This document shows positions 20,672 through 28,053 of a DNA stretch of 64,000 nt, in pieces. The DNA lies in contig NZ_SNUE01000006.1 of the NCBI RefSeq assembly GCF_012027425.1, forward strand, positions 62,001-126,000. The letters run 5' to 3'. How positions within the stretch are numbered: position 1 is the stretch's first letter; each line of letters starts with the position of its first letter. This DNA is from Thermococcus sp. MV5 (GTDB lineage: Archaea; Methanobacteriota_B; Thermococci; Thermococcales; Thermococcaceae). A program made the translations under genes and the position numbers. The notes beneath the pieces are model-generated. The model made no database searches and was not told where the DNA came from. It saw nothing but the letters and a program-made list of their open reading frames with translations.

Positions 20672-20828
20672 CATCCGACCCACCCGGTAGCCCGACCGAA
20701 GGAGCCCTAGGGTAGCTATGAATTCTGGGGACGATGCCGGGTGGACAGGGCTTGGTCTCCGGGATCACCCGAGATGGCCGAAAATGGCCCACAATGAAGG
20801 TGAGAGGATATACCAAGCCCACAACCGA
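20672..20828 (+). ncRNA. two-hairpin H/ACA guide RNA
   Basis: A GC-rich island in AT-rich DNA with two H/ACA units in tandem. Unit I has base stem CCACCCGG (20680-20687) pairing perfectly with CCGGGTGG (20737-20744), followed at once by ACA (20745-20747). Unit II has base stem GGGCTTGGT (20748-20756) with ACCAAGCCC (20812-20820), then ACA (20821-20823). Unit II also has an upper stem TCACC/GGTGA (20765-20769 and 20799-20803). Its pocket strands are 20757-20764 and 20804-20811, and GA/TGA elements of an L7Ae K-turn lie at 20771-20772 and 20795-20797. Such RNAs guide pseudouridylation of rRNA with Cbf5, Nop10, Gar1 and L7Ae. Ends are approximate. Confidence 0.85.
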
Positions 20829-20870
20829 AGGTTTTTATCCCATTACGTCAAAAACTTTTTGGTGGTGCTA

Positions 20871-24891: not shown

Positions 24892-25003
24892 GGCGCTCAC
24901 CTAAGGACAACAATGCTTAAATATATGCTTGAATGGAACTTAATAGTAGAGGTCTCTTTAACCTTTATTCGGTTTTTGATATATATATCTAATGGTGGTG
25001 AAA

Positions 25004-26698
25004 ATGCAACTTCCAAGAATCACACCAATAGAAGAAAACATTGTATGTACAAAAAAAGGCGAGATTTCAGAATTAGTCCACAATACATTGTCTAATCAAG
25101 AATTTAGCGGAGTATTTCTGAAAATATTTGCAAAGGATGACACTGAGAAATACTACGTCACATTATTGATGGACAAGCGAAAACTTTTGGCTTCTAAAGT
25201 GTCACTCCTCTCTTCAAAGACTGAAGTAATCGGAGATGAGAGTTTAAAAATATTAAAAAGGATTGTAAACTACCCATTGGTCGTTGATATATATGGATTA
25301 GATGAAATAGAGCTGAAAATTTCAATAACAGATAACCTAGACATATACAATGCCACTCCAAAAATTGAAATCGACAAGATTTTTGAAGAAACTATTGTTG
25401 AAAATAAGGAACTTGCCAAGAAAGAAAAAATTTTGGAAAAGGTTCTCAAGAAAAAAGAAGTAAAAAAGAAAGAACCGAAGCCCCCCTCCACAGTTGAAGA
25501 AAAAGTATTACCTAAAAAAGAAAAGGCCTCTAAAAAATCGCCCAAACCAAAAAAGAGAAAGAAAACTCTCGAACCTGAAATTACAGTAGAAATAATTGGT
25601 GGTGAGATCTTTAGACCTATTCTCGAGGAATATACAGAAGAAGTTTTGAAAGAAGTTCAAACACTCGATGGGGTATCTCCACAGAAGGTTAAAATAACTG
25701 GAGAAGTAGGCTCAGGAGTTATATATCTCCACGTAGAGTTCTATGGAATCAGTGAAGAAGAGCCAAATACTAGGCAGATGTCCGAAAGAAGAATATTATA
25801 CTTCATCAACAAACATCTTCCAATAATCTGGAGAAAGGCTGGACTTAAGCCAATTCTAAGCGGTGCACAAGCAAAAATAACTGGACCGGGGGAGTCTTTT
25901 GAAGATGAAAAGAAAGCTTTAGAAAGTAAGAAGAAAATCGCTCCTCGTAAAATTGAGAGCAATATCTCAGTTGAAGCTCATGAAAGCATTAAGCCCTATT
26001 TCTCCACATATGCCAAGGCAATCCTCCAAGATATACAGAATGCAGGAATTGATGTAGAGAAAATGCACCTCGATATAAAAGGAAGAAGTGAACATGAGAT
26101 CAATCTAACACTTTGGGGTAAAGCTCCAGGTAAGACTCATGCACAAGCAAGAAGCATAGTAGAAAGCATCCTGAAAACTCATGCAAAAGAGATTTCCAAA
26201 GCTCTAAACAAATACATTACAGTTCACCGAGTAGAAATTAATCTAGAGGAAACTGAGGGGGAAGTTTCAGAAAGTGTAAAACAAATACTCTCAAAGAAAG
26301 AAGAGTTAGAAAAGGAAATAGAAAAACTGCTTAAGGAAGTGGGTGTTGATGAACTTTCCTCTTTAACCGAAGAAAAAAGGAGAGAAATCAAAGAGAGCTT
26401 AATAAAGCCTAAAGTCGAACCAGCGATAGAGGCCTTAAGAAGGCGGCTACAAAACATGTTTAAGGATCTTCCAAATTCCGTATTCAGATGGATGCGATTG
26501 GATTGGGAACTTCATAGAAATGAGGTCTTAATAACTTTAGAGGCAAGCTTTGACAAAAGAGGAAGTCTAATAGGGGTAGTCTCAGATGACAGAATAATAG
26601 AGGATGCCACTCAAGTATTAAACAGGGCTGTCCAAGAAATCTCCAAAGAACACAACGTACCAATCAAAATCAAAAATATAAATATAAACGTCAGGTAA
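25004..26698 (+). CDS. conserved archaeal protein, DUF2226-like
   Basis: About 564 residues. The N-terminal 150 residues (MQLPRITPIEENIVCTKKGE onward) resemble DUF2226, known only from archaea. A highly charged Lys/Glu/Pro linker follows (about 130-190), then two similar alpha/beta repeats (ITVEIIGGEIFRPILEEYTE at about 192 and ISVEAHESIKPYFSTYAKAI at about 330). A coiled-coil stretch lies at about 425-470, and a final domain ends in NININVR. The function is unknown; the soluble, repeated architecture suggests a scaffold or adaptor. GGTGGTGAAA before the ATG at 25004 sets the start. Its 3' end overlaps the antisense C/D RNA. Confidence 0.65.
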   Translation: MQLPRITPIEENIVCTKKGEISELVHNTLSNQEFSGVFLKIFAKDDTEKYYVTLLMDKRKLLASKVSLLSSKTEVIGDESLKILKRIVNYPLVVDIYGLDEIELKISITDNLDIYNATPKIEIDKIFEETIVENKELAKKEKILEKVLKKKEVKKKEPKPPSTVEEKVLPKKEKASKKSPKPKKRKKTLEPEITVEIIGGEIFRPILEEYTEEVLKEVQTLDGVSPQKVKITGEVGSGVIYLHVEFYGISEEEPNTRQMSERRILYFINKHLPIIWRKAGLKPILSGAQAKITGPGESFEDEKKALESKKKIAPRKIESNISVEAHESIKPYFSTYAKAILQDIQNAGIDVEKMHLDIKGRSEHEINLTLWGKAPGKTHAQARSIVESILKTHAKEISKALNKYITVHRVEINLEETEGEVSESVKQILSKKEELEKEIEKLLKEVGVDELSSLTEEKRREIKESLIKPKVEPAIEALRRRLQNMFKDLPNSVFRWMRLDWELHRNEVLITLEASFDKRGSLIGVVSDDRIIEDATQVLNRAVQEISKEHNVPIKIKNININVR

Positions 26699-26758
26699 AC
26701 TCAGTACTCAAGATCTTCATCATAGCAATGCTCAGGTTTGCCGAGCTCATCACTACCT
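26693..26758 (-). ncRNA. C/D box guide RNA (2'-O-methylation)
   Basis: All four boxes are perfect on the minus strand. C box is GTGATGA (26753-26747), followed by an 11-base guide (26746-26736) and D' box CTGA (26735-26732). An 8-base spacer leads to C' box ATGATGA (26723-26717), then a 12-base guide (26716-26705) and D box CTGA (26704-26701). AGGTA (26758-26754) and TACCT (26697-26693) can close a terminal stem. Spacing is exactly that of archaeal C/D sRNAs that work with L7Ae, Nop5 and fibrillarin. By the D+5 rule the D' guide targets G in GTTTGCCGAGC and the D guide targets the fifth base, C, of TACTCAAGATCT. It overlaps the end of the upstream convergent gene. Confidence 0.9.
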
Positions 26759-26897
26759 AAATTTTACTTTTTTGAGTTTTTAAGTTCTCTGTTTTGACAT
26801 TTTCCCTGTCCTAAATAAGATGCTTTTAGGTGGTAGAGTTCTATCAAATCTTTTTCGAAACATTAAGTTTTTAAACTGATTTATTCTCTCCAAACAC

Positions 26898-27764
26898 ATG
26901 AACATCCTCTTCGGAGCATTGCTGGCATTAGTCGCTGCATTTGGCTGGGGAACTTCATCAGTTCTAATTAAAGTTGGAATGAAAAAGAAGAGCGCCATTA
27001 CCGTGAATATTATAAGATTATATATAACAGTACTTTCCTATCTAGTTCTATTCATATTTACAGGGAGTTATAGAGAGATAGTCAACCTTTCATGGAAGCT
27101 TATTCTAGTAGCATTCATTTCAGGTCAATTTGGATTTGTTGTAGGAGATTACTTCTATTTTAGCGCCCTCAGAATTATGGGAGTTTCACGGACAGTCCCT
27201 ATAACCTCTTCGTATCCCCTTTGGACAATATTATGGACATGGTTATTCCTTGGAAGGCAAATAAATATTCAGATCGTTCTTGGAGCCTTTCTTGTCTTCC
27301 TAGCTATTATCATTGTGAGAAAGGGAGAAATTGAGGAACATTTAAACCCAAAGGGATTTATCTTTGCACTTTTAGCCCCCATATCTTGGAGCATTGCTAT
27401 AGTGCTGTTAGATTTTCTTTCCTCTCAAGTCTCCCCTATTTCCCTTGCCGGAATCAGACTTGCCTTTGCAGCTATGGGAATTACCCTCTTTCTACCTAAA
27501 TACTCCACGGAATTAAAAGAAGTCACAAAGAATGAAATAGTCCTTTTATCAGCAGCAGCGCTTTTGGGGCTCATAATAGGTCAATATGCGTTTGTAAAGT
27601 CAGTAAGTTTAGTTGGTTCGCAAATATCTGCTCCAGTAAGTGCTATTAATCCAATAATCTCTTCTGCTCTTGCAATGGCACTTCTAAAGGAACCACCAAA
27701 TAGAAAGATCATCTTAGGATTAATCTTAGCTGTCACAGGTGTTATCCTAATAACGACAGCGTAA
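26898..27764 (+). CDS. DMT superfamily (EamA) transporter
   Basis: A 288-residue permease with ten predicted helices in two EamA repeats (about residues 3-138 and 150-286). The second repeat has the conserved pattern ISAPVSAINPIISSALAMALLKEPP (about 246-270). The substrate is unknown; family members export metabolites or amino acids. A TATA-like GTTTTTAAAC (about 26868-26877) lies close to the ATG, suggesting a leaderless message. Confidence 0.85.
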   Translation: MNILFGALLALVAAFGWGTSSVLIKVGMKKKSAITVNIIRLYITVLSYLVLFIFTGSYREIVNLSWKLILVAFISGQFGFVVGDYFYFSALRIMGVSRTVPITSSYPLWTILWTWLFLGRQINIQIVLGAFLVFLAIIIVRKGEIEEHLNPKGFIFALLAPISWSIAIVLLDFLSSQVSPISLAGIRLAFAAMGITLFLPKYSTELKEVTKNEIVLLSAAALLGLIIGQYAFVKSVSLVGSQISAPVSAINPIISSALAMALLKEPPNRKIILGLILAVTGVILITTA

Positions 27765-27844
27765 CAATCATCACACACAAGGAGGTAGTTTCAAGAAAAA
27801 AAGAGTAAAGAATTTAACCTCTTATGATTATCTTTTAATGCCGA

Positions 27845-28002
27845 CAGCGAGGGTACATAGTTGTACCCTCGTTGGGCCTGGTATACCCGCCTCCACAAGG
27901 TATCGGGCTCTGTGAGTGGGGGTGCTCACACTAGGCCCACAGGGCCGGTGCATCCACCCGCGCGAAAAATGAACGCGGGGCTCTGTTGCCGGCCCACAAT
28001 TC
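27845..28002 (+). ncRNA. two-hairpin H/ACA guide RNA with 5' hairpin
   Basis: A GC-rich island. A strong hairpin CGAGGGTAC/GTACCCTCG (27848-27856, 27863-27871) comes first. Unit I has base stem GGGCCT (27874-27879) with AGGCCC (27933-27938), then ACA (27939-27941). Unit II has base stem GGGCCGG (27942-27948) with CCGGCCC (27989-27995), then ACA (27996-27998). Unit II also has an upper stem CCCGCG/CGCGGG (27957-27962, 27974-27979) capped by a loop with GA and TGA, fitting an L7Ae K-loop. The 3' pocket of each unit starts about 15-16 bases before its ACA, the canonical distance. It guides pseudouridine formation, probably in rRNA. Ends are approximate. Confidence 0.87.
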
Positions 28003-28053
28003 TCCAAAAAATTCTTATACCCGCTCTTCTAAAGCACTTTAGAGAGGGATACC

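What the first reader, a model, noticed from the sequence alone, without database searches (positions are those of the whole stretch)
26693..26758. Perfect C/D box guide RNA antisense to the end of a DUF2226-like gene
All four boxes (GTGATGA, CTGA, ATGATGA, CTGA) and all spacings (11, 8 and 12 bases) fit archaeal C/D sRNAs, and a 5-bp terminal stem closes it. The 3' end overlaps the convergent protein gene by a few bases. The same strand also reads as a short protein-like frame, so an annotator could easily miss the RNA.
Basis: partly seen in the sequence, partly recalled or inferred. Interest (0 to 1): 0.6.

Follow-up and report, generated by a model that had tools for sequence, protein, structure and literature searches.

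The report
Guide RNA for leucine tRNA methylation
This is a genuine small archaeal guide RNA that almost certainly directs methylation of the wobble base of one leucine tRNA, an orthologue of a known Pyrococcus RNA; less expected, its second guide also fits the same tRNA and its main guide recurs across several archaeal phyla.

Summary
On the minus strand at 26753-26701, boxes C, D', C' and D are perfect with 11-, 8- and 12-nt spacings. It is the only such match in the window, and 200 simulated windows gave none. The D guide pairs 10 bp Watson-Crick with tRNA-Leu(CAA), placing D+5 on wobble C34. The D' guide pairs 9 bp with the D arm of four tRNA-Leu species, placing D'+5 on G10. No rRNA target exists.

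The D half occurs exactly once in 83 of 85 genomes of the phylum, with no control hits. It also recurs in at least 118 stretches, mostly Thaumarchaeota, Thermoplasmata, Micrarchaeota and Thermococcaceae. D' pairing to tRNA-Leu is kept in 73 of 78 Thermococcaceae copies.

A Pyrococcus guide for tRNA-Leu(CAA) position 34 is published (PMC7994747), so this is an orthologue of a known kind. The D' target on the same tRNA was not in the published lists I could read. The closing stem is not conserved, the neighbour is not a DUF2226 protein by Pfam, and overlap with a gene's 3' end is common for such RNAs (PMC4247193). Expression and methylation are untested.

The parts
26701..26753 (-). C/D box guide sRNA, core from box C to box D (53 nt); the mature RNA probably extends a few nt each side
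   Evidence: conserved in 83 of 85 genomes of the phylum
26747..26753 (-). box C, GTGATGA
26736..26746 (-). D' guide GCTCGGCAAAC; 9 bp with TTGCCGAGC of tRNA-Leu CAA/CAG/UAG/GAG (positions 8-16), D'+5 = G10
   Evidence: CTCGGC kept in 73 of 78 Thermococcaceae copies
26732..26735 (-). box D', CTGA
26724..26731 (-). D'-C' linker GCATTGCT; GC...GC kept in the genus and in sister families
26717..26723 (-). box C', ATGATGA
26705..26716 (-). D guide AGATCTTGAGTA; 10 bp with ACTCAAGATC of tRNA-Leu(CAA) (positions 31-40), D+5 = C34
   Evidence: GATCTTGAGT invariant in 78 of 78 Thermococcaceae copies
26701..26704 (-). box D, CTGA
26754..26758 (-). 5' arm AGGTA of a possible terminal stem
   Evidence: present here, not conserved in relatives
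26693..26697 (-). 3' arm TACCT of a possible terminal stem; overlaps the stop codon of the + strand gene
26774..26787 (-). promoter-like element GAACTTAAAAACTC; CTTAAAAA (TTTAAAAA in one) recurs at this distance in the genus
   Evidence: inference from conservation and spacing; no transcription data
24992..26698 (+). convergent 568-aa gene of unknown family; syntenic in most Thermococcaceae examined
26898..27764 (+). divergent EamA-family transporter gene on the promoter side of the sRNA; syntenic

Best explanation
A single-copy archaeal C/D box sRNA, probably transcribed from its own minus-strand promoter. It would assemble with L7Ae, Nop5 and fibrillarin and guide 2'-O-methylation of tRNA-Leu(CAA) at wobble C34 through its D guide. 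Its D' guide pairs with the D arm of tRNA-Leu and would place a second methyl on G10, or on U9/U8 in species where the register is shifted. Shown here: the sequence anatomy, conservation, target complementarity and register, unique targets, and the Nop5 and fibrillarin genes. Inferred: transcription, RNP assembly and the methylation itself. Confidence is high for C34 and about 0.5 for actual D'-directed methylation.
For: Four perfect boxes, none expected by chance; Rfam snoPyro_CD E=2.9e-4. D guide: 10 bp in register with tRNA-Leu(CAA) only, with the next best in-register run anywhere in 45 tRNAs, 16S and 23S being 5 bp; 4 of 1500 shuffled guides did as well. D' guide: 9 bp in register with four tRNA-Leu species; 129 of 1500 shuffles reach 9, both guides together 1 of 1500. 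TGCCGAG occurs only in tRNA-Leu among the tRNAs, 16S and 23S tested. The D half is present once in 83 of 85 genomes of the phylum with no reversed-pattern control hits and in at least 118 stretches, mostly archaeal, about 0.5 expected by chance. Genomes from several other phyla that carry it also have tRNA-Leu(CAA) with ACTCAAGATC. Adjacent Nop5 and fibrillarin genes exist in this genome. A Pyrococcus C/D sRNA for the first anticodon position of tRNA-Leu(CAA) is reported (PMC7994747), and C34 of tRNA-Leu(CAA) is listed as a predicted site in P. furiosus (PMC7668247).
Against: No expression or methylation data for this organism. In P. furiosus mass spectrometry saw Cm34 in some tRNAs, but the other listed predictions were not detected in the tRNAs analysed. 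D'+5 falls on G10 in 60 copies, U9 in 12 and U8 in 1, and five copies no longer match GCCGAG at all, so a D'-directed methyl at one fixed base is not strictly conserved. L7Ae was not searched for.
Confidence: 0.93

Rival explanations
1. Single-target guide: only the D half works (Cm34). The conserved D' pairing with the tRNA-Leu D arm is an anchor or folding aid that holds the tRNA on the RNP and does not itself direct methylation.
For: The CTCGGC pairing core is kept in 73 of 78 copies while its distance to box D' slides by 0-2 nt, moving D'+5 from G10 to U9 or U8. Published lists give C34 but not G10. Both guides hit the same tRNA.
Against: In 60 of 78 copies, and in every copy of the window's own genus, the register is exactly +5 on G10. 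Archaeal C'/D' motifs normally support methylation (literature).
Confidence: 0.35
2. Antisense regulator of the convergent 568-aa gene.
For: The 3' end overlaps the gene's stop codon by a few bases, and the convergent order is syntenic across most Thermococcaceae.
Against: Overlap is limited to the non-conserved flank; distances to the gene vary between genera, and some loci show no such neighbour in the stretch held. The D half recurs in phyla with unrelated flanks. In T. kodakarensis 16 of 17 antisense snoRNA candidates sit over a 3' gene end (PMC4247193), so the arrangement is ordinary.
Confidence: 0.03
3. Guide for an rRNA site.
For: Most archaeal C/D sRNAs with known targets hit rRNA (literature).
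Against: Best in-register rRNA runs are 5 bp for D and 7 bp for D'.
Confidence: 0.01
4. Short protein-coding frame, or chance motif.
For: An open frame can be read over part of the strand.
Against: No ORF of 40 aa or more over the sRNA on that strand. Conservation follows the boxes and guides, not codons, with linkers that vary in length out of frame.
Confidence: 0.01

Closest known systems
Pyrococcus C/D box sRNA predicted to guide position 34 of tRNA-Leu(CAA) (Clouet-d'Orval 2001, as reported in PMC7994747; paper itself not held)
   Same: Same RNA class and same predicted target nucleotide. The window's family contains one copy per genome, including all g2 genomes, which I take to be Pyrococcus from contig lengths (memory, not tested).
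   Different: The published summaries I could read list only C34; the D' pairing with the tRNA-Leu D arm is not mentioned there.
tRNA-Trp intron C/D sRNA (sR50), guiding Cm34 and Um39 (PMC7994747)
   Same: Two guides of one RNA act on one tRNA, one of them at wobble C34.
   Different: That guide lies in its target's intron; this one is a free-standing gene acting on tRNA-Leu.
Bacterial TrmL, a protein enzyme for Cm34/Um34 of tRNA-Leu (PMC3763551 abstract)
   Same: Same modification position in the equivalent tRNA.
   Different: Protein-only enzyme; no guide RNA.
Rfam RF00095 snoPyro_CD
   Same: Box order, length and spacing.
   Different: Scores below the gathering threshold (29.7 against 45 bits); Rfam has no family that claims this RNA at its cut-off.

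Membership tests
Archaeal C/D box sRNA | Boxes C (RTGATGA), D' (CTGA), C' (TGATGA), D (CTGA) in order | tested here: met
Archaeal C/D box sRNA | Guides of about 8-12 nt directly upstream of D' and D with at least 8-9 bp to a stable RNA spanning the +5 base | tested here: met
   10 bp and 9 bp on tRNA-Leu
Archaeal C/D box sRNA | Conserved in relatives with boxes and guides kept and linkers varying | tested here: met
Archaeal C/D box sRNA | Host has fibrillarin and Nop5 | tested here: met
Archaeal C/D box sRNA | Host has L7Ae | not tested
   no search spent on it
Archaeal C/D box sRNA | Expressed as a 50-65 nt RNA bound to the C/D proteins | not testable with these tools
   no RNA data
Rfam RF00095 snoPyro_CD | Score at or above the gathering threshold | tested here: not met
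   29.7 bits against 45
tRNA-Leu(CAA) C34 guide (Pyrococcus type) | D guide complementary to the anticodon loop with C34 at D+5 | tested here: met
   invariant in 78 of 78 copies
tRNA-Leu(CAA) C34 guide (Pyrococcus type) | Methylation of C34 depends on this RNA | not testable with these tools
   needs mapping in a deletion strain
Double guide for one tRNA | Both guides match the same tRNA in register | tested here: met
   G10 and C34 of tRNA-Leu(CAA) in this genome
Double guide for one tRNA | The second site is fixed across the family | tested here: not met
   G10 in 60, U9 in 12, U8 in 1, retargeted or lost in 5

The most novel reading that the evidence does not exclude
The D half is an old archaeal module for tRNA-Leu(CAA) Cm34, found near-universally in the window's phylum and recurrent in Thaumarchaeota, Thermoplasmata, Micrarchaeota and a few Asgard genomes, while the D' half is swapped between lineages. 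In Thermococcaceae the D' half was captured to bind the D arm of the same tRNA, giving a two-site hold on tRNA-Leu with a second methyl at G10 or a chaperone role.
Probability: 0.45. Interest if true: 0.5.

Novelty: new member of a known kind. Interest (0 to 1): 0.36.

Why it matters
It names a target for an unannotated gene that Rfam misses at its cut-off. It suggests that archaea place the wobble methyl of tRNA-Leu(CAA) with one guide RNA module shared across several phyla, where bacteria use a protein enzyme. It also makes a testable claim of a second, D-arm interaction on the same tRNA. A review (PMC7994747, citing Pyrobaculum work) states that tRNA-targeting sRNAs usually have one guide without a target; this family would be an exception.

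Tried and rejected
rRNA targets for either guide: none. A guide for tRNA-Leu(UAA) in this genome with the pattern TGATGA..TCTTAAG..CTGA: none found. Compensatory change in tRNA-Leu for the five Thermococcaceae copies with CCAGGC in place of CTCGGC: the tRNA-Leu(CAA) genes are unchanged; CCAGGC instead fits GCCTGG in the D loop of the same and many other tRNAs, so retargeting or loss, not covariation. Compensatory change at G37 for the GATTTTGAGT variant in a sister family: in G049 the tRNA keeps G37, so it is a G-U pair. Functional terminal stem: not conserved. Primary papers (Clouet-d'Orval 2001; Lui 2018) are not held.

Full report
Observation. The minus strand at 26753-26701 reads GTGATGA GCTCGGCAAAC CTGA GCATTGCT ATGATGA AGATCTTGAGTA CTGA. 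A strict four-box pattern has this one match in 64 kb; 200 first-order Markov simulations gave none, and a much looser pattern gave 0.065 per window. Rfam's snoPyro_CD matches end to end at E=2.9e-4 but under its curated threshold, so a default Rfam annotation would miss it.

Target. The window lies in a 1.98 Mb archaeal genome of 101 contigs whose window also holds HgcE and HgcF, RNAs described from Pyrococcus. I took 16S, 23S and 45 distinct tRNAs from that genome and scored in-register Watson-Crick runs through the base five positions from each D box. The D guide gives 10 bp with ACTCAAGATC of tRNA-Leu(CAA), and the base opposite D+5 is the first anticodon base, C34; the next best run anywhere is 5 bp. 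The D' guide gives 9 bp with TTGCCGAGC in the D arm of tRNA-Leu CAA, CAG, UAG and GAG, and the base opposite D'+5 is G10; the next best run is 7 bp. Shuffled guides reach the same run in 4 of 1500 (D), 129 of 1500 (D') and 1 of 1500 (both). Alone, the D' match is therefore weak; conservation makes it convincing. TGCCGAG occurs only in tRNA-Leu among all 16S, 23S and tRNA sequences tested.

Conservation in the phylum. The pattern TGATGANGATYTTGAGTNCTGA is present in 83 of 85 genomes of the phylum, once each, with no hit to the reversed control pattern. Among 78 Thermococcaceae copies the ten guide bases GATCTTGAGT are invariant (they were part of the search pattern, apart from the C/T position). 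D' guides, which were not part of the pattern, come in 35 forms, but CTCGGC is kept in 73, followed by A in 68, which is the part that pairs with tRNA-Leu 9-15. The distance from that core to box D' is 4 nt in 60 copies, 5 in 12 and 6 in one, so D'+5 would be G10, U9 or U8. Five copies have CCAGGC instead, while their tRNA-Leu(CAA) genes are unchanged. The pairing is thus better conserved than the exact base it would methylate, which leaves open whether D' methylates or merely holds the tRNA.

Conservation beyond. Of the 80 listed, my count from record titles is 26 Thaumarchaeota/Nitrososphaeria, 21 Micrarchaeota, 18 Thermoplasmata (including one Methanomassiliicoccales), 9 Thermococcaceae, 2 Heimdallarchaeota, 1 Diapherotrites, 1 other euryarchaeon, 1 unnamed archaeon and 1 contig labelled Proteobacteria whose sRNA is of the thaumarchaeal type and is probably mis-binned. 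With 20 fixed bases over 257 billion bases, about 0.5 chance matches are expected (my arithmetic). Most listed copies show a box C and a D' box upstream. Genomes from Thermoplasmata, Thaumarchaeota and Diapherotrites that carry the D half have tRNA-Leu(CAA) with ACTCAAGATC. Their D' guides differ by lineage: GCGACCCCTT in a sister family has 9 bp in register with the window genome's 23S (a proxy), and ACGAACCCTT recurs in Thermoplasmata. Common descent and convergence on a conserved anticodon loop cannot be told apart from this.

Surroundings. The sRNA lies between the stop codon of a convergent 568-aa gene (24992-26698, +) and a divergent EamA transporter gene (26898-27764, +); this order is found in most Thermococcaceae loci held. 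The 568-aa protein has no Pfam match, so the DUF2226 label is not supported. A promoter-like CTTAAAAA lies about 25 nt upstream of box C here and in nearly all the genus (TTTAAAAA in one). The overlap with the gene is confined to the non-conserved flank. In T. kodakarensis 16 of 17 antisense snoRNA candidates lie over a 3' gene end (PMC4247193), so this layout is usual.

Machinery. Adjacent Nop5 and fibrillarin genes are in the genome (L253). L7Ae was not searched for.

Known or new. [quoted passage not shown] PMC7668247 lists C34 of tRNA-Leu(CAA) among database predictions for P. furiosus, but lists no position 10 of tRNA-Leu. The present RNA is therefore an orthologue-level member of a known kind. 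What I did not find in the papers held is the D' pairing with the same tRNA and the recurrence of the D half in several phyla; the primary 2001 paper was not available, so priority is not established.

Verdict. Real, well explained and mostly known. Modest added interest comes from the double hold on one tRNA and the breadth of the D module.

Noticed in passing
window 27840-28009 (+) and 20710-20840 (+): Two H/ACA guide RNAs, HgcF and HgcE, score well above the Rfam cut-off in the same window.
   Followed up: no
L285, L289, L296, L312, L319: Five Thermococcaceae copies carry CCAGGC in place of CTCGGC in the D' guide. It fits GCCTGG of the D loop, shared by many tRNAs, with D'+5 near G15; the tRNA-Leu(CAA) genes are unchanged.
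   Followed up: partly
L080, L082, L099: In a sister family (f2) tRNA-Leu(CAA) appears to have an intron next to the anticodon that begins so that ACTCAAGATC reads the same before and after splicing; ARAGORN mis-calls these as tRNA-Ser(CGA).
   Followed up: no
L112, L126, L135 and other thaumarchaeal loci: Thaumarchaeal copies share a strong terminal stem (GCAGGC or GCGGGC with GCCTGC), unlike Thermococcaceae.
   Followed up: no
G036:C1:1182705-1182746: A perfect 42-nt copy of the 5' half of tRNA-Leu(CAA), away from the intact gene: perhaps an attachment site of an integrated element.
   Followed up: no
L169: A contig labelled Proteobacteria carries a thaumarchaeal-type copy of this sRNA, probably mis-binned.
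   Followed up: no
L031 (G001:C99): Genome G001 holds a second, different copy resembling genus g5, probably contamination of that incomplete assembly.
   Followed up: no
window 24992-26698 (+): 568-aa protein, syntenic in Thermococcaceae and as low as 30% identical between genera, with no Pfam family.
   Followed up: no
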